64,000 nucleotides of DNA from Bacteroidota bacterium (GTDB taxonomy: Bacteria; Bacteroidota; Bacteroidia; Bacteroidales; F082): the NCBI GenBank assembly GCA_018830105.1, contig JAHJTC010000011.1, forward strand, positions 1 through 64,000, written 5' to 3'. Shown in pieces: positions 53,141 through 64,000 of this stretch (the stretch's first letter is position 1; each line of letters opens with the position of its first letter). The notes under the pieces are model-generated. The model was not told where the DNA came from. It saw nothing but the letters and a program-made list of their open reading frames with translations, and did not search any database. Position numbers and translations under genes: made by a program.

Positions 53141-54175
53141 ATGATGAGAAAAATAAAAAAAAGCGATATTGTTCGTTCATCGGCTGCCGAATATTTAACC
53201 TTTATTGCAGCTCATGGCGAGGGGGGTGTTGAGGCTGTTTATGCCGATGAAAATATTTGGCTGACACAAAAAATGATGGGCACACTGTATCATGTAGAAA
53301 CCCATACCATCAATTATCATTTAAAGAAAATATTTACCGACAGCGAATTACAGGAAGATTCAGTTATTCGAAATTTTCGAATAACTGCTTCCGATGGAAA
53401 AAACTATACAACAAAACATTATAATTTATCGGCTATAATAGCAGTAGGATACAAGGTGAATTCGGAGCGAGCCGTGCAATTTCGCAAATGGGCAACGGGC
53501 ATTATTCAGGAGTTTACCATAAAAGGGTTTGCCATGGACGATGAACGCCTGAAAAACGATGGAACTATCCTAGGGAAAAAATACTTCGAAGAACAACTAC
53601 AACGTATTCGGGAAATACGCCTGAGCGAAAGGAAGTTTTACCAGAAAATCACAGACATTTATGCTACGGCAATAGACTACGATGTAACTGCCCAAGCCAC
53701 AAAACGCTTTTTTGCAACCGTGCAAAACAAACTGCATTGGGCTATACATGGGCAAACAGCAGCAGAAATAATTGTAAGCAGGGCCAACCATCAAAAAGCG
53801 AATATGGGACTTTCAACATGGAAAGATGCACCAAAAGGTAAAATCCAGAAATTCGATGTTAGTGTCGCCAAGAACTATTTATCAGAAAACGAAATGCAAC
53901 AACTTCAGCGACTGGTTTCGGCCTATCTTGATATTGCCGAGGATATGGCGTTACGACAAATACCAATGACCATGGAAGACTGGGAAACCCGGCTCAACAA
54001 ATTCATTGCTGCTACCGACAGGGATATTTTACAGGATGCCGGAAAAGTAACTGCTGAAATAGCCAAAGCACATGCCGAATGTGAGTTTGAGAAATACCGT
54101 ATTATTCAGGATAGATTGTTTGAAAGCGATTTTGATAGAACATTAAAGATATTATTGGATAAAAAACATCTTTAG
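53141..54175 (+). CDS. RhuM family protein
   Basis: A 344-aa protein with the RhuM/virulence-RhuM pattern: AVYADENIWLTQKMMGTLYHVETHTINYHLKKIF, then VIRNFRITASDGKNYTTKHYNLSAIIAVGYKVNSERAVQFRKWA, and a C-terminal LNKFIAATDRDILQDAGKVTAEIAKAHAECEFEKYR helix. The function is unproven; such genes sit in pathogenicity or defence islands and resemble phage antirepressor/KilA-N regulators. It opens the defence island. It is full length. Confidence 0.88.
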   Translation: MMRKIKKSDIVRSSAAEYLTFIAAHGEGGVEAVYADENIWLTQKMMGTLYHVETHTINYHLKKIFTDSELQEDSVIRNFRITASDGKNYTTKHYNLSAIIAVGYKVNSERAVQFRKWATGIIQEFTIKGFAMDDERLKNDGTILGKKYFEEQLQRIREIRLSERKFYQKITDIYATAIDYDVTAQATKRFFATVQNKLHWAIHGQTAAEIIVSRANHQKANMGLSTWKDAPKGKIQKFDVSVAKNYLSENEMQQLQRLVSAYLDIAEDMALRQIPMTMEDWETRLNKFIAATDRDILQDAGKVTAEIAKAHAECEFEKYRIIQDRLFESDFDRTLKILLDKKHL

Positions 54176-54252
54176 TAACGCCTGACGAAATGGCAATTGC
54201 TTAAATGAAATAAACGAAACCATCTACTGGCTCGGCGCTTGGGATCCGAATA

Positions 54253-55305
54253 TCAATAAAGAGAACCAATACTGAATTTTCTGTTTGGCTCATAGTCTTC
54301 CCTTTTTTGAATTAGTGTAATAGGTGTTTCACTACTTTGTATCTTTTTGACAAGTGATGTTAATTGTCTTTGGTCAATAGAATACATTAATCCACGTGCA
54401 CCATCAAAGAAGCAATTTAAGGCGCCTAATGATTGCCCATATTTCAATGCTTTTTTGACGTTTGATTCATTGCATCTGTCGAAAGACTTAATACCATTTA
54501 CTGCCAGTTTAGAAATTAAACCCGCAGAAAACCAATCTCCCGAACCCGCAGCATCCACTACATATGATATTTTATAGCTTTGTATAGTATTCCATTGCTC
54601 GGCACTTAAACTATGACTGAATCTATATCTAAGCCCATCTTTGCCTAAGGTTTCTATCTCGAGGGGAACTTGTTGCTTTGTAAATTTAGCTGAATAATTT
54701 TTAATTCTATCATATGAAAACTTAATAATGTGAGCAACTTTTAGACATTCTTCGAACTGTTTGTTTTCTTGCATTGATGAAGGTTCAAAGAATATTAATG
54801 AACCTTTTTCTCTATAGTACTTTGCTAAATCAATAGCAGACCGATTTACTCTATCAAAATAAAACACAGATGCCAATGGTGACTTTTTTATTAACTTTCC
54901 AACATCTGATCCAAGTACCGGCTTGTATGCAGGAAGCCATTCGCCAGAATCTGGATTTTTGAATTGAAAGCTGTGCAATGAATTGCCATTTTTGTCTTTT
55001 TTTATTCTTTGAATGATAATAGGTGTACTTCCATCTACTGTTTGACTAATTAAAGTTGTATGTACATTCCATTTTTTCAAATCTGATAGTAGTTCTTTTG
55101 AGGCATTATTCTCTTTAAATCTTGCAACTGGAAATGCTTCCCAATTCAAAAAAGAGAGTATAGTTAAAACATTTCCACAAGAACCTCCTGCAAATAGTTT
55201 TAATGGTACTTTAGGATTGCCGTTTATCACAACGTCTAGAGCAATTAATTCTGATCCAACACAAATTGGTTTCTTCTTTAATTTAGATGTCATTTTATTT
55301 TGCAT
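54253..55305 (-). CDS. PfkB-family carbohydrate/nucleoside kinase-like protein
   Basis: A 350-aa ribokinase-fold protein. An FAGGSCGNVLTILSFL substrate loop lies near residue 40 and the catalytic motif reads DAAGSGDWFSAGL near residue 250, where the family has DTxGAGD; the Asp base (GSGDWF) is kept. The substrate is unknown. Its location between RhuM and a restriction system suggests a defence or element cargo role rather than sugar metabolism. Its ATG lies 6 bp from a miniature inverted-repeat element, so its original upstream region may be altered. Confidence 0.8.
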   Translation of the reverse strand: MQNKMTSKLKKKPICVGSELIALDVVINGNPKVPLKLFAGGSCGNVLTILSFLNWEAFPVARFKENNASKELLSDLKKWNVHTTLISQTVDGSTPIIIQRIKKDKNGNSLHSFQFKNPDSGEWLPAYKPVLGSDVGKLIKKSPLASVFYFDRVNRSAIDLAKYYREKGSLIFFEPSSMQENKQFEECLKVAHIIKFSYDRIKNYSAKFTKQQVPLEIETLGKDGLRYRFSHSLSAEQWNTIQSYKISYVVDAAGSGDWFSAGLISKLAVNGIKSFDRCNESNVKKALKYGQSLGALNCFFDGARGLMYSIDQRQLTSLVKKIQSSETPITLIQKREDYEPNRKFSIGSLY

Positions 55306-55311
55306 TATAGG

Positions 55312-55416
55312 GGCTGTCTAAAAAGTATTTTCGACCTTGATTTATTCGGGCACCTATACGACACAAAAGTCAAATATTCGATTCTAAAGGACAAATCACT
55401 GACTTTTTAGACAGCC
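55312..55416. mobile_element. ~105-bp MITE-like element
   Basis: Terminal inverted repeats: GGCTGTCTAAAAAGT at 55312-55326 is exactly complementary to 55402-55416. The ends resemble IS1182/IS4-group termini (resemblance from memory). There is no coding sequence inside. It lies between the kinase gene and the 163-aa gene, and the last residues of the latter (TEAV, stop) are encoded by the element's end. Confidence 0.82.
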
Positions 55417-55898
55417 TCAGTTAAAAATAATTCGCTTTGTTCATTAATTTCTCCTAATGATTCTTCTTCCTCAATTCTGTAACCTCTTGAGTCTACATTC
55501 AAAACGCCAATGCCAATTTTGTCATTGAGCCTGTTATTCAGTTCGTTGGCAGTGATTAGAGCACCTATAGAAAGAAGCTTACTAGAAAAGGTTGAAATGG
55601 CTGCTTTACATCCTGCTATTATTGACAGGGTTTTATTGTAGTTAATAATTGCATTACTAAGGTTACGATAAACTTCAAAAGGATTCTGTTCCGGCACATA
55701 CAACAGATTTTGAAATTCAATTCTCAATTCATCAAAAAGTAGCTGATGATATTCAATGATTAGGGTATCTGATCTCCTCGGATCCTTTGCAGGAAAAGAA
55801 AGCAGAGGGCAAATCTCTCGTGGGTCAATTTTATTTTGCACAACAACTATAAGCAACTCTTCATAGAACCAAAAGAGCCAATTTCGCCAACCACTCAA
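55407..55898 (-). pseudogene. Hypothetical protein, truncated by MITE
   Basis: 163 aa of open frame. The only start near the upstream stop is TTG at 55898, and the C-terminus (LTEAV) comes from the inserted element, so both ends look unnatural. The content is mixed helical with VYRNLSNAIINYNKTLSIIAGCKAAIST and a GIGVLNVDSRGYRIEEEE segment. I do not recognise the family. Probably a remnant of a larger gene once paired with the PfkB-like kinase in the same direction; that pairing is inference. Confidence 0.55.
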
Positions 55899-55964
55899 TA
55901 TTGATACTTATAGTCCGTAGTCTTATTTGCATCTATTTGTGACCTTTGTGACTAAATTACAAAA

Positions 55965-56204
55965 ATGGGAACAGCATATACTAAAAGAGATAAAGTCTAT
56001 TTGGAACGAATAGGAAATAGGATACGAGAATTTCGTCTTGAAGCAGATTTATCTCAAGAAAAATTAGCTTTCGTTTGTGACCTCGACAGAACTTACATCG
56101 GGTCTGTTGAAAGGGGCGAAAGAAATATTTCTGTAATTAATCTCAGTAAAATTGCGAGAGCCTTAAAAGTTCAAGTATCCGCTTTACTAAACGTTGAAGA
56201 ATGA
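55965..56204 (+). CDS. Controller (C) protein / XRE-type repressor
   Basis: A 79-aa single-domain HTH_XRE protein: IGNRIREFRLEADLSQEKLAFVCDLDRTYIGSVERGERNIS. Its size and placement fit the C proteins that time restriction-modification expression. Its stop overlaps the endonuclease start by four bases (ATGA), so it precedes and couples to the nuclease gene, the classic C-R order. Confidence 0.88.
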   Translation: MGTAYTKRDKVYLERIGNRIREFRLEADLSQEKLAFVCDLDRTYIGSVERGERNISVINLSKIARALKVQVSALLNVEE

Positions 56205-57319
56205 ATAAAGACTTTAAAACTCCTCCAAAATCAGTTAAAATGCTGACTGATTCAGATACATTAGCTAAGTGCTTATTAGGATTGGTTGGAAAGCCATTTA
56301 CTTTAACTGGAAAAACAAGGACTGACGGTTCAAACATACGCAAACTGATAGCTTCAATATTGGAGAAAAACCGCTTACCGGAATTAGCAGACAGTGGGCA
56401 ATTTGAAATTGTTCCCCCGAAGGGAAAGGGTGTTCCAAAAATTACCAGAGAGTTTATTGATACATACATTATAACGAGTGGCACATCTTATAATTTGCAA
56501 GTCTGGAATAGAGTTCCAGCGGCTGAATCACTATTAATAAAATATGAATCGGGCGAAAGCCTGAAATGTACGGATGTGCGATTTGTTTTTGCCCGAATTG
56601 ATGCGGTAAAAAACATTATAGCTTCGATTGTAATATTAACCCCTGGATATATAGAACTAAGGTTTGGAAAGTTTGGTAAGCCAACGATTAAGCATCAACT
56701 TCTAATTTCAAGAAAAGTAAGACAGGATATTTACAAACGTGAAGATAGAATCCTTTCATTTCCCGATTCCAAAAAACTCTCTTACTTCATTCGACACGAT
56801 TACCAACCACCTAAATCAGGAATGATTGAGGAACCGGATATTAAACATTTATACTCCATTGCTTTATTAAAAAAAATGGTTGCTGAAAAGTTAATTGGGT
56901 TCAAATTGGATGCGGCAGCCACAAAAAATAGAGGTCAAGCTCTTGAAAAGAAAGTTCTTGAATTACTTGGATATGAGATAAAGGAAACAGATTTGTTATA
57001 CGGTGCTTTCCCCGACATTAGAAATCAGTTGATGGAAATAAAAGTACAGGACAGTCCGACAGTAGATTTAGGCAAATTTTCACCTGAAAAGGAAGAAATT
57101 GTTATTGAAGATTCTAGATTGACAACCTTTGACGTAAGGTATTTGATAGCATTAACCAATCCTGAAACTGAAATAATTGAAGGCATTATACTTGCTCCCG
57201 GTGAAAAGTTGGGCGATTTATTTTCTTATGTAAGTGCTGAAAGCTATAAATGTCAACGGGCCATACCAATGGCTTTTTTCGACAACTTTTACGGAAAATC
57301 TGTTTTTAATCCAGCTTAA
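56201..57319 (+). CDS. Type II restriction endonuclease, PD-(D/E)XK fold
   Basis: A 372-aa protein. The catalytic motif is visible: Pro271-Asp272, then Glu279-Ile280-Lys281 (FPDIRNQLMEIK), preceded by GQALEKKVLELLGYEIKET, a typical helix of the fold. The recognition sequence cannot be predicted. It is co-translated with the C protein and convergent with an N6-adenine methyltransferase, overlapping it by 14 bp, which completes a restriction-modification system. I could not assign a named endonuclease family. Confidence 0.85.
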   Translation: MNKDFKTPPKSVKMLTDSDTLAKCLLGLVGKPFTLTGKTRTDGSNIRKLIASILEKNRLPELADSGQFEIVPPKGKGVPKITREFIDTYIITSGTSYNLQVWNRVPAAESLLIKYESGESLKCTDVRFVFARIDAVKNIIASIVILTPGYIELRFGKFGKPTIKHQLLISRKVRQDIYKREDRILSFPDSKKLSYFIRHDYQPPKSGMIEEPDIKHLYSIALLKKMVAEKLIGFKLDAAATKNRGQALEKKVLELLGYEIKETDLLYGAFPDIRNQLMEIKVQDSPTVDLGKFSPEKEEIVIEDSRLTTFDVRYLIALTNPETEIIEGIILAPGEKLGDLFSYVSAESYKCQRAIPMAFFDNFYGKSVFNPA

Positions 57320-59018
57320 AAACAGGTTCTACACCAAAAGATTTTGCTATTCTAATTTCCAATTGTATTTCCAATTCAGAAATGTCTTTTTTATCGTTTG
57401 ATAGATTCAATTTTTTCACGATAGAAACAATCTCTTTCGCTATCGGAGAGCGAAAATCGGGTAATGGATACCTTTCTACATATTGTGTAAAATACCTTCT
57501 TCTGCCGGAATACAATTTGTTATTGAACATCAAATCATGGTACTTGGTCATTAATTTTGAATTAGCGATCCCCTGAATCAATAAGAGTTTTTCAATATCT
57601 TCTTCATTTGTTGCCACAATCCAGTAACAATTACCATTTACTATTTTGCCACCAATATCAAAACAAAAACGGGGAATTAAACTAATATCAGGAAAAACAA
57701 GCTTTGGGTATTTCCATTGATCAGGATGATGAGGAACCCATAATTCAAACCATTGCCGACCTGCCTCAATAAGATATTTTCGTGACTTTAATTTTTCTTC
57801 GTGCTGCAAAAAATAATTTTTGGCTTTAGGATATTTCTCAATATCAATGGTTTGCTTTTCACCATTAACGGAAATGTGTGGATAGAGTACTTTTAATTTA
57901 AAATTATCAGTTGCATTCCACGGTTCCACATTTTCTTGTGAAATTAAATCTTTCAATAATTTATATTCTGGCTTATCAGTTTTGAGTTCTTCCCATTTAT
58001 CACTAATAAATACTTTATCTGCAGTTGATTTTATGCCAACTTTTACCTTAAAAAAATCCTCAACTCGATTTTTTGCAGCCTTGTCAATTTTTGAAACCCA
58101 ATCCGATTCATTATTTGACAACATTTCCCAACAAGAACCGGAAGCAACTTTATACTTCAATATACCTGATGATTTTTTGTACCGTTTGCCATTTGCAATA
58201 AAATATCCCGACTGTTCATTGTTTAACACATCATAGACAGTTTCTACAGCAATCAAATCGCCTTTATAACCATTCAATACCTCATAAATCTTAAGAAACT
58301 TTGCAGCAGACTGTTTTTTTTGTTTTTGCTTTCGCCCAATAAAAATAGCGGGTAATACAGCAGCATCAAATAGCTTTGTATCTCCTAAATCAATCATTTC
58401 CAAAATATCATAATTTTCTGACAGAAATTTTCGGATACTTTCTCCTCCTTTTGTTGACAAATATCTGTTAGAAGTAATTACCCCAAGGATTCCCCCTTCT
58501 TTCAGGCCTTTAGTCATGGCAATCAGAAAAGGATAATACAGGTCAACCCTTCCTTTTAAATTAAACTTTCGAGCAAGTTCCTGTGCCTGTTTCGTTCCCA
58601 ATAGCTGAGTTCGTACATAAGGAGGGTTAGCAATGACGATATCAAAGGAATTATTTACCGATGACTTATTGTTTTCTTGAAACAAATCTAAACTACTTTG
58701 ATGGGAAGAAACATCAATAGCCTGTAAGAAATCTTCGTGAACGAGTTTAGTGTTTTCAGTACCAAATCGTAAAATCCTTTCATGAGCTAAGCTCAAGTAT
58801 TGCTCATTGGCATCATAGCCTGTAAGTGAAAAATCAATATCTGAATCAAAAAGAATATCGCCCATTGCAATGAGTAATTCTCCTTCACCACAGGCAGGGT
58901 CAAGCACCTTTTGATTGGTTGGTTTGATATAAGAAGCAATCTTTTCCGCTAAAAAAACGGAAAGCCCTTGTGGGGTAAATGTAGCCCCTGTATTTTTTAT
59001 TTGCTCCTTTGTTGTCAT
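57306..59018 (-). CDS. N6-adenine DNA methyltransferase (Eco57I/TaqI-like)
   Basis: About 570 aa from ATG at 59018 (MTTKEQIKNTGATFTP); a TTG four codons upstream is less likely. SAM motif I is VLDPACGEGELLIAMGD and catalytic motif IV is NPPY (DIVIANPPYVRTQLLG), marking adenine-N6 methylation. The C-terminal ~300 residues match TaqI-like target recognition. It protects host DNA from the convergent endonuclease. TATCTTTG on the minus strand (59035-59028) is a probable -7 element, making the message nearly leaderless. Confidence 0.92.
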   Translation of the reverse strand: MTTKEQIKNTGATFTPQGLSVFLAEKIASYIKPTNQKVLDPACGEGELLIAMGDILFDSDIDFSLTGYDANEQYLSLAHERILRFGTENTKLVHEDFLQAIDVSSHQSSLDLFQENNKSSVNNSFDIVIANPPYVRTQLLGTKQAQELARKFNLKGRVDLYYPFLIAMTKGLKEGGILGVITSNRYLSTKGGESIRKFLSENYDILEMIDLGDTKLFDAAVLPAIFIGRKQKQKKQSAAKFLKIYEVLNGYKGDLIAVETVYDVLNNEQSGYFIANGKRYKKSSGILKYKVASGSCWEMLSNNESDWVSKIDKAAKNRVEDFFKVKVGIKSTADKVFISDKWEELKTDKPEYKLLKDLISQENVEPWNATDNFKLKVLYPHISVNGEKQTIDIEKYPKAKNYFLQHEEKLKSRKYLIEAGRQWFELWVPHHPDQWKYPKLVFPDISLIPRFCFDIGGKIVNGNCYWIVATNEEDIEKLLLIQGIANSKLMTKYHDLMFNNKLYSGRRRYFTQYVERYPLPDFRSPIAKEIVSIVKKLNLSNDKKDISELEIQLEIRIAKSFGVEPVFKLD

Positions 59019-59106
59019 TGATACATGCAAAGATACTTAAAATCATCAAAAAAGAGAGACATGAATTCCATATACTTATTAACAAACGACTGGGGAAGTT
59101 AAGAGA

Positions 59107-60183
59107 TTAACACTCAAAGATTTCTTTGATATACCTTGGATTTTCTTCAATTCTCCCAATATTTGTTCTCAATTGGTTTGAGATGTAGCTTTTCTGCATA
59201 CCAGTTATTTTATCTTGCAGATTATTGTTTGAGTTTGCAATATCCATCAAACTTTTTTGTCTCAACTTCTTTGAAATAAAGTCCATACAATTCAAAAGAT
59301 TTTCGGTCGGTGAAGTATAAACTCCAAAATTATTTTCTGATAATGCATCAACCACACATTGCTCAACCACCAAAGTGGGTAACGGCAATCTATTCCTGTC
59401 TCTGTATGTTTTCAAAAGTTTTATAACTGTTCTTGCTTCAGGTTTATTTATAGTCATGCTTTTTTGAACACCAACGTTTGTTTTAAACGAACTTCCCCTT
59501 TGCCAAATCCAATCAGGTTTTACAAATAGATTCAAGTCCTTTTCAACAGTGTAATTATTGATTTCCCTTCCCGGAACAACATCAAAGTGAATTGGATTGC
59601 CATTATTTTCAAAAGTTAGCCCAATAGCTTTTGTTTGTTTAGTTACTATAGCTCTATCACCAAACTCTTTCCCTACAACCTCATAAACATCATAGTACAT
59701 TTCTTCCAAAGAGTTGTAACTATTTCGCTTAAATGGAAGCACAATATCTAAATCGTAATTTGAGCTAATTGCAGTTCGCTTATAAAACGAACCAGTGTCT
59801 TCTGGCATAGTGACAAGTTTGTTACCAAATTTATCTGCCAACCATTGTTTTACTTTCTCACGATAAGCAACTACACTTTTAAAAACAGTAGGGTTTGCTT
59901 TCAGATGTTCTTCCGTCAAAATCTTTTTCACATAATCATCTGAATTAAAAGGGAGCTTTGCCTCTTCTTTAGTTTTAAAACAGTAAACCGCATAACCAAC
60001 ACCACCACCAATAACACCAGCAATTGAAGCATATTTTATAGTTCTCCAACCGTTGTAACTTTCCCAAGTGAAATCTTTACCTCTCTCATTATGTTCAAGC
60101 CCTTGAATAAAAATATCTGCAAGTGCTGTTACACCTGCAAAAATTACAGTTCCATTTACAATGTGTCTGTCTTGTCTTCTCAT
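59107..60183 (-). CDS. Second CBASS nucleotidyltransferase with two N-terminal TM segments
   Basis: A 358-aa protein. Two hydrophobic segments (residues ~8-27 and ~49-68) precede a polymerase-beta-type nucleotidyltransferase domain with Gly131-Ser132, Asp144-Leu-Asp146 (NYDLDIVLP) and Asp201 (HFDVVP), so the metal-binding triad is intact. An EARTVIKLLKTYRDRN helix follows, as in OAS/cGAS-like enzymes. It is the last gene of the CBASS operon; its ATG overlaps the E2 stop by four bases. Its role is unknown: a second messenger enzyme, a membrane effector, or a modifier. It is separate from the CD-NTase at 60614 and only distantly similar. Confidence 0.85.
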   Translation of the reverse strand: MRRQDRHIVNGTVIFAGVTALADIFIQGLEHNERGKDFTWESYNGWRTIKYASIAGVIGGGVGYAVYCFKTKEEAKLPFNSDDYVKKILTEEHLKANPTVFKSVVAYREKVKQWLADKFGNKLVTMPEDTGSFYKRTAISSNYDLDIVLPFKRNSYNSLEEMYYDVYEVVGKEFGDRAIVTKQTKAIGLTFENNGNPIHFDVVPGREINNYTVEKDLNLFVKPDWIWQRGSSFKTNVGVQKSMTINKPEARTVIKLLKTYRDRNRLPLPTLVVEQCVVDALSENNFGVYTSPTENLLNCMDFISKKLRQKSLMDIANSNNNLQDKITGMQKSYISNQLRTNIGRIEENPRYIKEIFEC

Positions 60184-60614
60184 TTGCTTTTTGTTTTAGA
60201 TTTTGGATGTTCACCACCACCAAGCCATTCACCAGTCAAGTGCCAAACCTCATAATGATATAACCACAATGAAGTCCAAGGGATAATTGTATCAGTTAAT
60301 AAATCCGTTCGGGTGAACTCACGGTATTTAGGTTGATACAGACATAAATATCCATTGGTGTAAAGATGCTCCGCATTTTCTCCTTTCTCATTTTTTTTTA
60401 GTTCAGGTGAAACAATTTTTATTCTCGGGCTATCAGTCAAATTGTATTTCAAGATGAAATTATAGATGGCACTTCTTGAAGTCGGTTGTAATGCACCAGT
60501 TACCTTCAATCCACTATGTCCAGTAAAAACGGTTTCAAACTGTGGATATTTACTTCTCATTGCAGCAAGCTGGTCAGCAATAGTTTTATCTCTTACCCTG
60601 AATTTTGCTCCCAT
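60180..60614 (-). CDS. E2-like conjugating protein of type II-short CBASS
   Basis: A 144-aa protein with a single cysteine, Cys91, in NGYLCLYQPKYREF, the expected thioester position of prokaryotic E2-like domains. The C-terminal half (DTIIPWTSLWLYHYEVWHLTGEWLGGGEHP) is the conserved signature of CBASS E2 proteins as I know it. No E1 or JAB protease is encoded nearby, so this is the short type II form, in which the E2 acts on the CD-NTase C-terminus. The gene starts one base inside the CD-NTase stop (TAATG), so the two are tightly coupled. Confidence 0.87.
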   Translation of the reverse strand: MGAKFRVRDKTIADQLAAMRSKYPQFETVFTGHSGLKVTGALQPTSRSAIYNFILKYNLTDSPRIKIVSPELKKNEKGENAEHLYTNGYLCLYQPKYREFTRTDLLTDTIIPWTSLWLYHYEVWHLTGEWLGGGEHPKSKTKSK

Positions 60615-61744
60615 TATCCTCCAAAAAAAGTATTTGATTTTATAGTAGCAGTACCTATGGAACTTGCCGAGGAAAGCATTCCTGTATTTCGTGTAACACC
60701 CAAATCGTTACTTTTTCTCAATTCTTCAATTCTTGCGGTCTGACTGATTTGAGCCTTTCTAAAAATATCATCACCGAATAATCCTTTCATAATTATTCCT
60801 TCTTCGGGAACACCATTTTGCGTTTTCAATTTCTGCCATTCATTGTATAAATGACTTGCAAATTTTTTAAACGCCTCATAGTATTCAGGTTCATCGTCCC
60901 ATTTATCGGTAAAATCTTCTTCTGCATTTACAGGATTCACAATCTTCAATCTGCCGGTTGGTTGATTTACTTTTGTGCGAATAGTGGTAATGATATTATC
61001 AACTGTATCAAAAATGCTTTCTTCACCTTGATAGAATTGAGCTGTAATAGTAGTAAGAATGATACTCGATGTTCTATAAGTATCATCTTTCTGAAAATAC
61101 ATATCACGATACCGCTTTATTAACTGAACAGCTCGCTGCAATGGCTTTTTATGTTTAAAATTATCGGTTGGTAGTTTTTCAGCTCTTAATGCTTTTTCAA
61201 GCAAACTTTCTTTTATCAAATTAGCCTTGCCAATAAACCAATCACCGTAGCCCCTTGGATTACTGCTTACCCAATCTCCCAATTCACGGTCAGGAACTTT
61301 TATTTTGTTTTGGTCAAACGGATTTTCTTGAATACCCGGAAGTATGTCCATATGAAAATCTCCAGTATAATTAAGACGGATACAACGATTCTTAGCTTCA
61401 AGCTTTAATCCATGTTTTTTTGCGTATGCCTCCATGCACCTTTTTAATTCCGCATAAATTCTTTGCGGTGTATGTGGCGTAGTACTTTTCAAATGAATGG
61501 CAATATCCAAATCAAACTCATCCTTACCAATTGGTTTCACGGTAGTAAGTATTCTGACTGAACCATGAGGATAAACGTCATAATTATATGGCTTGAAAAA
61601 TATTTCATCATCCTCAATCCAACTCTTTACGGATTCATAACTTGTTTTCATACGGTCATATCTTGTGTCGTCAAGTTGAACCGCTTCTGCCATCTTATCT
61701 AACAGGTCATCAAGTTGCGTGGCTTTGTTTTCTAGTCTTATCAT
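60614..61744 (-). CDS. CD-NTase (cGAS/DncV-like), CBASS signalling enzyme
   Basis: A 376-aa protein. The active site has Gly61-Ser62 (YPHGSVRILT), Asp78-Leu-Asp80 (DEFDLDIAIHL) and Asp133 (FHMDILPGI). The helical half contains PLQRAVQLIKRYRDMYF. It should make a cyclic nucleotide on phage infection. The extreme C-terminus reads NTFFGG, a Gly-Gly tail like the ones CBASS E2/Cap2 enzymes act on. It overlaps the NUDIX gene upstream (ATGA) and the E2 gene downstream. The nucleotide product cannot be told from sequence. Confidence 0.93.
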   Translation of the reverse strand: MIRLENKATQLDDLLDKMAEAVQLDDTRYDRMKTSYESVKSWIEDDEIFFKPYNYDVYPHGSVRILTTVKPIGKDEFDLDIAIHLKSTTPHTPQRIYAELKRCMEAYAKKHGLKLEAKNRCIRLNYTGDFHMDILPGIQENPFDQNKIKVPDRELGDWVSSNPRGYGDWFIGKANLIKESLLEKALRAEKLPTDNFKHKKPLQRAVQLIKRYRDMYFQKDDTYRTSSIILTTITAQFYQGEESIFDTVDNIITTIRTKVNQPTGRLKIVNPVNAEEDFTDKWDDEPEYYEAFKKFASHLYNEWQKLKTQNGVPEEGIIMKGLFGDDIFRKAQISQTARIEELRKSNDLGVTRNTGMLSSASSIGTATIKSNTFFGG

Positions 61745-62544
61745 CGTGGTAATATTTTAAATGTATGTGGTAATATGGTTTCGCCATTGATAGATGAACC
61801 TTTTCTAATCTCGTCAGGACTTACAAAAATGATTTCTCCATGCTTATTCAAAAGATTAGCTATAGCTGTTTTTTGTGCATCTGTTTCAGGTCTTAATTCA
61901 TAAATTTCTGCATACCTGAACTCATCTATTGGAAAAACAGGAGAAGGTAATATGCCTTCTGTATGTTTTCCAATAAAAACGTACTTCACGTGCCTAAAGG
62001 GTTCAGAAGGCAATAATCCAGGTTCTATTAGTTCCTCATAAAATTCCCTCCAAGGATCAATTTCTCTGTTTTTTCGGCTTTCAAACCACTTCAAAAATTC
62101 AATGAGATTCTTCCGTTTATTTATTCTTATCCTTAAATCATGCTCTGTATCTTCATCTCGTGGGACATGGTCACATGGTTCTATACCAAGGCTGTCAAAA
62201 AGTTCTCTGTTCTCTTCTTTGAAAAATTTAAATGCCCCTCCAACTGGCTGGTATCCTACTCTATCCTTTTTGTGCCTTTTAATAAGAGCATATTTACCGT
62301 TTACCTCAATGCGAAATAAATATGCGACCGTAACTCTTACAGGCTTCGATGATTTAAAAATCTTTGTTTTTAAAAGATTCCATCGCTTTCTGTTTTCAAT
62401 AATAAAAACAATAAATTCAATTAGCCCACCAGCAACAAAACCCAATGAGATTTTGAAAATGGTATTTTTCGGTTCATCTTCTTTGAGAAAAAAACAAACT
62501 ACAAAACCTATAAGGCCAATAACGAAACTAACTTTACCTTTCAT
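61741..62544 (-). CDS. Two-TM NUDIX-domain CBASS effector
   Basis: A 267-aa protein. Two N-terminal membrane helices (residues ~4-20 and ~29-49) are followed by a NUDIX-like domain: ALIKRHKKDRVGYQPVGGAFKFF, and much later WREFYEEL (Arg166-Glu167, Glu170-Glu171). The helix residues of the Nudix box are kept but ~60 residues separate them from the GG turn, so it probably senses the cyclic nucleotide rather than hydrolysing a Nudix substrate. This is the SMODS-associated 2TM-NUDIX type (called Cap16-like, from memory). The membrane helices suggest killing by membrane disruption. Confidence 0.85.
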   Translation of the reverse strand: MKGKVSFVIGLIGFVVCFFLKEDEPKNTIFKISLGFVAGGLIEFIVFIIENRKRWNLLKTKIFKSSKPVRVTVAYLFRIEVNGKYALIKRHKKDRVGYQPVGGAFKFFKEENRELFDSLGIEPCDHVPRDEDTEHDLRIRINKRKNLIEFLKWFESRKNREIDPWREFYEELIEPGLLPSEPFRHVKYVFIGKHTEGILPSPVFPIDEFRYAEIYELRPETDAQKTAIANLLNKHGEIIFVSPDEIRKGSSINGETILPHTFKILPR

Positions 62545-62547
62545 TCC

Positions 62548-62781
62548 TTAATGCTTTTTATCTTTTGGAGGATTAGGATCATTGCCGTAGGAATCTTTAT
62601 CCCTTATTGTTCCGTCAGGTCGATGAATTACTACTTCCGATTTCTTATTGAGTGCAATTTCACGGGCAATTTTTATTGCCTCAGCTTGGGTATCTACAAT
62701 CTTGGTAGCCTTGCTGTTCCCTGCTCCTTTTACAGCCCAATCTTTACCATTAGGTACTACATGTTGATTTTTCTTGCTCAT
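62548..62781 (-). CDS. DUF2188 protein
   Basis: A 77-aa protein matching DUF2188 along its length: HVVPNGKDWAVKGAGNSKATKIVDTQAEAI, then VVIHRPDGTIRDKDSYGNDPNPPKDKKH. Function is unknown. It starts the CBASS operon, three bases from the effector gene, so co-transcription is likely. Whether it belongs to the defence mechanism or is a passenger is unclear; DUF2188 genes are widespread near mobile elements. Confidence 0.85.
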   Translation of the reverse strand: MSKKNQHVVPNGKDWAVKGAGNSKATKIVDTQAEAIKIAREIALNKKSEVVIHRPDGTIRDKDSYGNDPNPPKDKKH

Positions 62782-62873: not shown

Positions 62874-62956
62874 TTCTAATAGAGTATGCTATAAATTCAA
62901 TTAAATTTGCCATCCAATGGCAAATATTTATCAGAACTTAGCATACTCTATTAGAA
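62874..62956. promoter_or_regulatory. Nested perfect inverted repeats (18 bp outside, 9 bp inside)
   Basis: TTCTAATAGAGTATGCTA at 62874-62891 is exactly complementary to 62939-62956. Inside the 47-bp spacer is a second perfect palindrome: ATTTGCCAT at 62905-62913 and ATGGCAAAT at 62917-62925 around CCA. It ends seven bases before the ATG at 62964, in the divergent gap between the CBASS operon and the sigma-like gene. It could be an operator for that gene, a large hairpin in its leader, or a tiny MITE. Confidence 0.8.
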
Positions 62957-62963
62957 AGCAGTA

Positions 62964-63485
62964 ATGACTTTAGAAGAAGCCCTCCATAAAAACGACATTA
63001 ATGAAACCATGGACAGCATGACTGCCTATGTGTATGGTCGTATAAAAACTATTGGAGTGAAGGACTTGGAAGGGAAAACCCCGGAAGATTTTGTAGGAGA
63101 GGTTTTGATGAAGGTTGCGAAAGGTGAAAGAGATTGGTCAAAGGCAAAATGTTCTTTTAAGGATTTTCTTTTCAGTTGCCTCAAAAGCCATCTGTATAAT
63201 TTTTTCAAATCCTTTGAACAGAAGTATGAAGCAGAGTTACCCGACATTGAAAGCCGAGCACCAGAAAATGAATTAGAGTTGAAACAAATTGCAATTCAAA
63301 AATTGAAAGAAGACGGAGCAGACCAAGATGAAATTGATGTTTTTGAATGTTGGATTGAGGACATGAACAAACCAGCAGAAATAGCTGAACTATTAGGGAA
63401 AAATGTGAAAGAGATTTACAATATCACAAAACGACTTGAAAGGAAAATTCCAAAACTTCAAATGCAAATATTAAAATTAGTATGA
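62964..63485 (+). CDS. Sigma-70-like (ECF-type) protein
   Basis: A 173-aa protein. Residues ~35-80 (GKTPEDFVGEVLMKVAKGE, FKDFLFSCLKSHLYNFFKS) resemble sigma region 2, and ~133-160 (MNKPAEIAELLGKNVKEIYNITKRLERKI) resemble the region 4 HTH. Homologues start small operons in Bacteroidota, but the function as a true sigma factor is not shown. It follows the nested inverted repeat closely. Its stop overlaps the next ATG (ATGA). Confidence 0.75.
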   Translation: MTLEEALHKNDINETMDSMTAYVYGRIKTIGVKDLEGKTPEDFVGEVLMKVAKGERDWSKAKCSFKDFLFSCLKSHLYNFFKSFEQKYEAELPDIESRAPENELELKQIAIQKLKEDGADQDEIDVFECWIEDMNKPAEIAELLGKNVKEIYNITKRLERKIPKLQMQILKLV

Positions 63486-63877
63486 GCAGAGTAATCAAAA
63501 ATAAAATTGATGATGCTTTGTTCAACTTCTATTTAGAAGCCGACAAAGATATAATCAAGGATTCACTGCAAGAGAATATTCAGAATCTTGTAGAATATGA
63601 ACAAAAGAAAAAGAAATTATTGTTTTTAGCTAAAGCAACTGCCAAAAAAAGGCACAATGATTCTTTAATGGAATTAGCAAATAAATTTCAAGAGGCATTG
63701 CTACTAAATATTGAAAAGCCAATTGCGATTTTGAAACAACTTGTTCAAGGCAATCCTTCTTTTGCTTTATACAGAAATCTTGACAAAATTTCTAAGGAGG
63801 ATATTATTGAAATCATTAAGGATAAAAATCTTATTCAACTATTTGAACAACTAGAAGAAAATGACAAGAGCCACTAA
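63482..63877 (+). CDS. Hypothetical helical protein
   Basis: A 131-aa, highly charged, all-helical protein (SRVIKNKIDDALFNFYLEADKD; RHNDSLMELANKFQEALL). No family is recognised. It overlaps the sigma-like gene by four bases and the next gene by 17, so three genes are co-translated. It may be a small regulator or anti-sigma-like partner; that is only a guess from position. Confidence 0.65.
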   Translation: MSRVIKNKIDDALFNFYLEADKDIIKDSLQENIQNLVEYEQKKKKLLFLAKATAKKRHNDSLMELANKFQEALLLNIEKPIAILKQLVQGNPSFALYRNLDKISKEDIIEIIKDKNLIQLFEQLEENDKSH

Positions 63878-64000
63878 TGCCCATATTCAGGCACAGCAAT
63901 TACTTGGTAATTGTGGGTTAGATGAAATTACTGACCTGGAAATGGACTTATTTGTTGCAGGGATTGATGCTATGCTACTTGAAGAAGAACTGAAAAATTG
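63861..64000 (+). CDS. Partial gene running off the right edge
   Basis: The first 46 residues (MTRATNAHIQAQQLLGNCGL, then DEITDLEMDLFVAGIDAM) begin at the ATG at 63861 and continue past the window. The opening resembles the start of ImmA/IrrE-type metallopeptidases, but the HEXXH region is not included, so the family is unproven. It overlaps the preceding gene by 17 bp and completes the visible part of a three-gene operon. Confidence 0.55.
   Translation, partial: MTRATNAHIQAQQLLGNCGLDEITDLEMDLFVAGIDAMLLEEELKN

What the first reader, a model, noticed from the sequence alone, without database searches (positions are those of the whole stretch)
62874..62956. Nested perfect palindromes between CBASS and a sigma-like operon
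An 18-bp perfect inverted repeat encloses a second perfect 9-bp inverted repeat in its 47-bp spacer, ending 7 bp before the start codon of the sigma-like gene. Two perfect nested repeats are unlikely by chance. It could be a dual operator, an RNA switch in the leader, or the ends of a miniature element.
Basis: seen in the sequence. Interest (0 to 1): 0.62.

Follow-up and report, generated by a model that had tools for sequence, protein, structure and literature searches.

The report
Two-way promoter of an immune switch
The nested palindrome is most likely a mirror-image promoter, read by a sigma factor encoded right beside it, that could turn on that sigma factor's own operon and a neighbouring antiviral operon at the same moment; the same kind of site sits between the same regulator genes and several different immune systems in related bacteria.

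Summary
Observation confirmed. The 18-bp and 9-bp perfect inverted repeats are real, single-copy, and share exactly one centre (62915). The 18-bp repeat arose in 0 of 200 shuffles.

The site goes with its right-hand neighbours: a sigma-70/ECF-like gene, a small protein weakly resembling CapH, and a full-length CapP peptidase (known from DNA-damage control of CBASS). In relatives the left-hand operon is CBASS, Pycsar, a ubiquitin-like (Bub) operon or others. The site resolves into two head-to-head half-sites, TATGCT(A/C)-N14-TTTGCCA. In the 20 loci with a strong site the 14-bp gap scores best, its sequence is nearly free, and the gap between the halves varies (3-11 bp). Seven loci also carry a lone half-site.

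Fixed inner spacing, free centre and lone half-sites point to two nose-to-nose promoters, not an RNA hairpin, a dimer operator or a mobile-element end. Best model: CapP cleaves the small protein (an anti-sigma), freeing the sigma factor to fire both operons. The two-part DNA site is shown; promoter activity, protease target and anti-sigma role are inferred. It is a new variant of CapH/CapP control that would work like Calp. Eight of 13 distant sigma relatives lack a significant site, and no transcript start has been mapped.

The parts
62885..62891 (+). -35-like box TATGCTA of the rightward half-site (3' end of the left 18-bp arm)
   Evidence: GCT is present in 40 of 40 halves of 20 loci
62874..62884 (+). 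outer part of the left 18-bp arm, upstream of the -35-like box; weakly conserved, A/T-rich
   Evidence: mean 0.52 bit per position in 13 loci
62906..62911 (+). -10-like box TTTGCC of the rightward half-site (inner arm 62905-62913), 14 bp from the -35-like box
   Evidence: last C in 39 of 40 halves
62912..62918 (.). centre between the two -10-like boxes, 7 bp here; 3 to 11 bp in relatives; common centre of both palindromes at 62915
62919..62924 (-). -10-like box of the leftward half-site (GGCAAA on the + strand; inner arm 62917-62925)
62939..62945 (-). -35-like box of the leftward half-site (TAGCATA on the + strand), 14 bp from its -10-like box
62946..62956 (-). outer part of the right 18-bp arm, upstream of the leftward -35-like box
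   Evidence: mean 0.61 bit per position in 13 loci
62964..63485 (+). sigma-70/ECF-like protein, 173 aa
   Evidence: TIGR02937 E 1.2e-7, below cut-off; alignment profile finds PDB sigma-H 3mzy E 5.9e-7; best structural matches of the model are mostly ECF sigma factors, best E 0.012
63482..63877 (+). 131-aa protein, proposed anti-sigma factor cleaved by CapP
   Evidence: Weak capH match E 0.0012; 9 of 15 homologues match capH at E up to 0.05, best 2.7e-5; no HTH match in Pfam; no convincing solved fold
63861..64000 (+). CapP-family M78 metallopeptidase, 269 aa, runs past the window end (L004 1862-2671)
   Evidence: capP E 6.6e-64, Peptidase_M78 E 2.2e-16; profile finds PDB 7t5t CapP E 2.7e-14
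62548..62781 (-). DUF2188 small protein, first gene of the leftward operon
   Evidence: PF09954 E 1.9e-25; start and length
61741..62544 (-). CBASS effector with SMODS-associated NUDIX domain
   Evidence: PF18167 E 3.8e-63; PADLOC 2TM effector E 4.5e-90
60614..61744 (-). CBASS cyclase (SMODS/DncV-like)
   Evidence: PADLOC cyclase E 1.1e-146
60180..60614 (-). CBASS E2-like protein
   Evidence: PADLOC E2 E 5e-44
59107..60183 (-). second nucleotidyltransferase-like protein of the CBASS operon
   Evidence: PADLOC cyclase E 1.6e-55

Best explanation
The palindrome is a symmetric two-way promoter. Each half is a complete promoter (-35-like TATGCTA, 14 bp, -10-like TTTGCCA) and the halves point at each other, so RNA polymerase carrying the neighbouring sigma factor can bind in either direction and start near the centre: rightward into sigma / small protein / CapP, leftward into DUF2188 and CBASS. 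At rest the small protein (an anti-sigma) holds the sigma factor. On DNA damage or phage attack, CapP (activated by single-stranded DNA, as published for its relatives) cleaves the small protein, the sigma factor is freed, and it fires both operons, with positive feedback on itself. Shown here: the conserved site, its geometry and its link to the sigma/CapP module. Inferred: that it is transcribed as a promoter, that this sigma reads it, that the small protein is an anti-sigma, that CapP cleaves it, and the ssDNA trigger.
For: Site directly upstream of the sigma gene in 15 of 15 sigma/small protein/CapP loci of the closest family. A motif trained on 3 of these also finds it in 5 of 13 more distant loci that were picked by protein; in each of these 20 loci 0 of 400 shuffles reached the score, and a 14-bp gap beat every other gap from 8 to 20. 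Halves scored singly with a free gap: 14 bp best in 15 of 15 rightward and 14 of 15 leftward. Boxes about 1.5 bits per position, spacers 0.3-0.5 in 13 non-redundant loci; centre 3, 4, 6, 7, 8 or 11 bp. Lone rightward half-sites 75-77 bp upstream in 6 loci and 134 bp upstream in a seventh. The last -35 base differs between clades and is the same in both halves in 18 of 20 loci. Partner operons differ: CBASS, Pycsar, Bub, others. Strict full-site pattern in 3 of 395 genomes, all at the module, reversed control 0. Sigma identity. CapP. A sigma gene lies upstream of CapP in 21 of 30 CapP loci of the phylum that were fetched.
Against: No transcript start or binding data exist here. In 8 of 13 distant sigma relatives the motif is not significant (shuffles reaching the score, of 400: L058 15, L015 49, L053 64, L056 132, L060 170, L016 199, L059 277, L067 279), nor in any of 9 loci with the other ECF type. 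Box limits were set after I had seen the 15 loci, and L038-L040 had been looked at by eye before the scoring. The strict pattern misses the weaker sites of G639 and G769, which are in the same class sample. Pfam and NCBIfam matches of the window sigma are below curated cut-offs, and no structural match reached E 0.001. The small protein's fold matches nothing convincing, and its family profile finds a true HTH CapH only at E 0.078, so 'anti-sigma' is inference. In the Arenibacter group the leftward -10 box is altered (TTATCC or ATATCC). Many of the 15 loci are close relatives, so they are not 15 independent cases. In the window the palindrome also folds very strongly as RNA.
Confidence: 0.72

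Rival explanations
1. It is an operator: a repressor or activator dimer (the sigma-like protein acting as a plain DNA-binding protein, the small protein, or an unlinked regulator) binds the palindrome and controls both operons.
For: Palindromes between divergent genes are classic operators (recalled); the canonical CapH is a DNA-binding repressor (PMC13373217 passages).
Against: The centre varies from 3 to 11 bp while the 14-bp gap inside each half is fixed, unlike one rigid dimer across the dyad. Lone half-sites exist. The second gene has no HTH family match.
Confidence: 0.15
2. It is an RNA element: a long hairpin in the leader of the sigma operon acting as a switch, attenuator or processing signal.
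For: Very strong predicted fold in the window, z -8.6 and -9.3; 11 relatives folded also have negative z, -1.3 to -6.3; the arms vary together between clades.
Against: Any DNA palindrome folds. The fold is weak in some relatives (z -1.3 in L014, -1.9 in L024). The two 14-nt internal-loop strands would not need fixed length while the terminal loop varies. No Rfam match reached its family's gathering score.
Confidence: 0.07
3. It is an invertible promoter (inverton) flanked by recombinase sites.
For: Bacteroidota often use short invertible promoters between inverted repeats (recalled).
Against: No flip seen in the window group: the leftward spacer begins AG[AGT]T[CT] in 7 of 7 loci and the rightward one in 0 of 7. 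Inverting a nearly symmetric site would change little. Both halves hold complete boxes.
Confidence: 0.03
4. It is a miniature transposable element or transposon end.
For: Perfect terminal inverted repeats.
Against: One copy in the genome assembly; no target duplication seen by eye; strict site found only beside the sigma/CapP module in 395 genomes and not at all in viral contigs.
Confidence: 0.01

Closest known systems
CapH+CapP controllers of CBASS, Bub and other immune operons
   Same: Full-length CapP peptidase encoded beside an immune operon, preceded by a small gene weakly matching the capH model; same kinds of partner.
   Different: An ECF-like sigma gene comes first, the small protein has no recognised HTH, and the site looks like a two-way promoter: activation instead of derepression. 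For contrast, L050 has a true CapH (HTH_3 E 5.6e-15, capH E 1e-24).
Calp (CalpL/CalpT/CalpS) of type III CRISPR
   Same: Predicted logic: a protease cleaves an anti-sigma and frees a sigma factor (PMC12751052, abstract and passages).
   Different: The protease is CapP-type M78, not Lon-SAVED; the expected signal is ssDNA, not cA4; found with CBASS, Bub and Pycsar. Homology of the small protein to CalpT was not tested directly; a PDB sequence search with its profile gave nothing convincing.
Bidirectional promoters of Escherichia coli (Warman, Grainger and colleagues)
   Same: Pseudo-symmetric DNA that can take RNA polymerase in either orientation, often serving linked divergent genes (PMC12825309 passages).
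   Different: There the -10 element is shared by both directions and sigma70 is used; here two separate -10-like boxes lie 3-11 bp apart, both -35-like boxes are conserved, and a dedicated sigma is proposed.
PprI/DdrO and ImmA/ImmR
   Same: M78-type protease that cleaves a partner regulator; ssDNA activates PprI (PMC10904395 passages; ImmA/ImmR recalled and search listing only).
   Different: Their targets are HTH repressors.

Membership tests
CapH+CapP controller | CapP-family metallopeptidase with an HExxH site | tested here: met
   capP E 6.6e-64; H78, E79 and H82 invariant in 15 of 15; profile finds PDB CapP 7t5t E 2.7e-14
CapH+CapP controller | partner is an HTH DNA-binding repressor | tested here: not met
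   No HTH family in the 131-aa protein; an ECF-like sigma gene is present instead. A true HTH partner was found in 1 of 30 CapP loci, L050
CapH+CapP controller | partner protein related to CapH | tested here: inconclusive
   9 of 15 match the capH model at E up to 0.05, best 2.7e-5; the small-protein profile finds CapH of L050 only at E 0.078
CapH+CapP controller | ssDNA-activated cleavage of the partner | not testable with these tools
   needs biochemistry
ECF/sigma-70 family | sigma region 2 and region 4 homology | tested here: inconclusive
   TIGR02937 in 15 of 15 at E up to 0.001, window protein 31.6 bits against a cut-off of 42.9; Sigma70_r2 E 0.059; PDB sigma-H 5.9e-7 by profile; top Foldseek matches mostly ECF sigma factors, best E 0.012, none at 0.001
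Calp | Lon-SAVED protease | tested here: not met
   the protease is Peptidase_M78/CapP
Bidirectional promoter | two opposing sets of core boxes on one short DNA | tested here: met
   two half-sites with the same boxes and gap; promoter activity itself not tested
Bidirectional promoter (E. coli type) | one shared -10 element | tested here: not met
   two -10-like boxes separated by 3-11 bp
Bidirectional promoter | mapped divergent transcript starts | not testable with these tools
   no RNA data
MITE | several copies in the genome | tested here: not met
   one copy in the assembly
Inverton | segment found in both orientations | tested here: inconclusive
   no flip among 7 related loci; no reads available

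The most novel reading that the evidence does not exclude
Bacteroidota carry a portable immune switch: a DNA-damage-sensing CapP protease destroys an anti-sigma, the freed dedicated sigma factor fires a mirror-image promoter, and whichever immune operon lies on the far side (CBASS, Pycsar, ubiquitin-like or unknown) is turned on together with the switch itself. Scanning for the half-site would then reveal new immune operons by their promoter.
Probability: 0.6. Interest if true: 0.8.

Novelty: new variant of a known kind. Interest (0 to 1): 0.72.

Why it matters
How dangerous abortive-infection systems are kept silent and then switched on is still being worked out. Here one short, readable DNA signature and three genes appear to control several unrelated immune operons. 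If right, it turns the known CapP repressor-removal scheme into active sigma-driven transcription, gives a natural case of a symmetric promoter for a dedicated sigma factor, and supplies a search motif for undiscovered defence operons (the 416-aa protein family beside L014, L023, L025 and L026 is a first candidate). In the 30 CapP loci fetched from the window's phylum, a sigma gene accompanies CapP in 21 and a recognised HTH CapH in 1; 8 are unresolved.

Tried and rejected
Mobile element: searched the own genome, 395 genomes of the class and viral contigs; one copy in the own genome, otherwise only at the module. RNA families: no match at a gathering score. Viral relatives of the sigma protein: none. 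Fold search with the small protein: nothing convincing, best E 2.3. Similarity of the small-protein profile to the HTH CapH of L050: not significant, E 0.078. The 39-base match on contig 31 lies before another gene and lacks the arms; taken as chance or a shared promoter-like string. Third half-site hit in the own genome, contig 19 with gap 15: no partner half was listed, taken as chance.

Results against the reading: the motif is not significant in L053, L056, L058, L059, L060, L067, L015 and L016 nor in 9 loci of the other ECF type. L015 has a rightward half-site only and L016 a leftward-like half only. L053, L058 and L060 show palindromic boxes with other letters, which I did not count as support. 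L066 was left out, as were 8 CapP loci with no assigned upstream regulator (L051, L055, L061, L063, L064, L068, L069, L070). Two of the 11 window-type sigma assignments are weak (L056 E 5.7e-4, L067 E 8.3e-4), and L059 rests.

Duplicates: L019 is the record behind G036/L009; L014, L010, L013, L033 and L054 are one locus; L040, L037 and L046 are one; L045 is the window. L019, L014 and L040 are counted once each.

Full report
What is there. The window holds an 83-bp interrupted palindrome at 62874-62956: outer arms of 18 bp, inner arms of 9 bp, both perfect and both centred on 62915. It is the only perfect inverted repeat of that length with a loop up to 100 in the window, and 0 of 200 dinucleotide shuffles had one. 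It occurs once in the genome assembly. To the left, on the minus strand, lie a DUF2188 gene and a CBASS operon (NUDIX/2TM effector, cyclase, E2, second nucleotidyltransferase). To the right, on the plus strand, lie a 173-aa sigma-like gene, a 131-aa gene and a gene for a 269-aa peptidase that runs past the window end.

What the right-hand genes are. The peptidase is CapP: PADLOC capP E 6.6e-64, and the alignment profile finds the solved CapP 7t5t at E 2.7e-14. The first protein is a remote sigma factor: TIGR02937 at E 1.2e-7, below its cut-off, and in 15 of 15 homologues at E up to 0.001; PDB sigma-H at 5.9e-7 by profile; top structural matches mostly ECF sigma factors, best E 0.012 and none at 0.001, from a model of mean pLDDT 75. 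The middle protein matches the capH model weakly (9 of 15 members at E up to 0.05, best 2.7e-5), has no HTH match and no convincing fold match. A profile of such middle proteins also finds the N-terminus of an SNF2 helicase encoded beside a related sigma gene in L016, E 3.7e-5. That suggests the N-terminal part goes with the sigma factor and the C-terminal part with CapP; this is inference.

Relatives. A scan of genome contigs with a three-sequence alignment gave 13 loci. With the window and G233 (L014) that makes 15, of which L019 repeats the G036 record used in that alignment. All 15 have sigma, small protein and CapP in that order, and the head-to-head site lies directly upstream of sigma in 15 of 15. 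A profile search of 395 genomes of the class gave 6 genomes with a match, three of them new (L038, L039, L040). A capP search of 395 genomes of the phylum gave 44 genomes with CapP at E up to 1e-20, of which 30 loci, one per genome, were fetched. In those 30, which include the window, G233 and G462, a sigma gene precedes CapP in 21: 11 of the window's kind (two weakly assigned) and 10 of another ECF kind, all 10 matching TIGR02937 or TIGR02985 at E up to 0.001. One has a true HTH CapH. Eight were not resolved. The phylum is Bacteroidota, judged from the record titles of the named relatives.

The geometry. With the gap left free from 8 to 21, the best rightward half-site has a 14-bp gap in 15 of 15 loci and the best leftward one in 14 of 15 (L027 excepted). 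A weight matrix from three loci (window, L019, L014), applied to 37 upstream regions, gave head-to-head pairs beyond all 400 shuffles in 20: the 15 above, three of them training loci, and L038, L039, L040, L047 and L057 among 13 distant ones; in these 20 a 14-bp gap beat all others from 8 to 20. L058 reached 15 of 400; the other 7 distant loci and the 9 loci of the other ECF kind were not significant. In 13 non-redundant loci the boxes carry about 1.5 bits per position and the spacers 0.3-0.5. GCT of the -35-like box is present in 40 of 40 halves and the last C of the -10-like box in 39 of 40. The centre is 3, 4, 6, 7, 8 or 11 bp. Six Flavobacteriaceae-type loci have a second, unpaired rightward half-site 75-77 bp further upstream, and a seventh has one 134 bp upstream. 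These seven are close relatives, so this is not seven independent events.

Why a promoter. A single dimer across the dyad would need a fixed centre, and an RNA hairpin would not need fixed 14-nt internal-loop strands. Two boxes at a rigid distance of about two helical turns, each half pointing its own way, is what a sigma factor reads with its regions 4 and 2 (recalled). Both halves should not be occupied at once, as noted for Escherichia coli bidirectional promoters (PMC12825309, passages). The last -35 base is A in the window group and C in the Arenibacter group and is the same in both halves in 18 of 20 loci, as expected if one protein reads both. The site follows the sigma/CapP genes, not the immune operon. 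Partners by family search: CBASS cyclases (window, L021, L022, L024, L027, L028, L040), Pycsar (L029), Bub-type genes (Multi_ubiq, ThiF and JAB in L020; E1-like in L018 and in L009, the same record as L019; L017 by likeness), a trypsin-like protein (L039), DUF1508 (L038), and a 416-aa protein without a family (L014 and L023 tested; L025 and L026 by likeness). A leftward gene starts within 350 bp of the sigma start in 22 of 24 loci checked; in L027 and L038 the next leftward ORF listed is further away. A strict full-site pattern found 3 of 395 genomes of the class, all at the module, with 0 in the reversed control; it misses the weaker sites of G639 and G769.

How it would work. The published CapH/CapP scheme is ssDNA-activated cleavage of a repressor (PMC13373217 passages; PMC10904395 passages; the original CapH/CapP paper is not held). 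The published Calp scheme is protease cleavage of an anti-sigma that frees a sigma factor (PMC12751052 abstract and passages). The locus combines the CapP protease of the first with the logic of the second. Autoregulation and co-activation of the immune operon follow from the symmetric site.

Novelty. Searches of the held papers for CapP or CapH with sigma factor, anti-sigma, SMODS, Bub or CBASS listed no paper that, from title and abstract, describes a sigma/CapP module. This covers open-licence papers only, and some listings were capped. In PMC13373217 I saw 12 of 15 passages with those words; none describes it. I therefore call it a new variant of a known kind.

Limits. No transcription or biochemical data were available. 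The sigma identity is remote. The anti-sigma role is inferred from operon order and weak CapH likeness. Whole-genome sampling was within the window's own phylum.

Noticed in passing
L041 3286-3314; L043 3342-3366: CapP loci with the other ECF-type sigma have a different, compact perfect or near-perfect palindrome just upstream of the sigma gene, so a parallel promoter or operator type may exist there.
   Followed up: no
L016 6391-8580: SNF2 helicase beside a related sigma gene carries an N-terminal stretch matching the small-protein family (E 3.7e-5; SNF2 E 2.9e-62). I saw no CapP by eye among the ORFs. The presumed sigma-binding part may be fused directly to an immune effector.
   Followed up: partly
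L023 5097-6347 and relatives in L014, L025, L026: A 416-aa protein with no PADLOC match (L014, L023) and no Pfam match (L023) is the main divergent partner of the module in several marine Flavobacteriaceae; in L023 a macro-domain protein lies two genes further on: candidate unknown defence operon.
   Followed up: partly
window 62548-62781; L021, L039, L058, L038: Small DUF2188 or DUF1508-type proteins recur as the first gene on the immune side of the site (family search for the window and L038; the others by likeness).
   Followed up: no
L004 3059-3131 (window coordinate about 65058-65130): A tRNA-Met gene lies about 390 bp beyond the CapP gene, next to housekeeping GTPase genes: a common kind of integration place.
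   Followed up: no
window 53141-59030: Further defence-like genes left of CBASS: RhuM-family protein, type II restriction enzyme-like protein and Eco57I/N6 methylase.
   Followed up: no
L053 367-420: A 54-bp imperfect palindrome with other box letters upstream of a distant sigma/CapP module; may be the same architecture with changed sigma specificity.
   Followed up: partly
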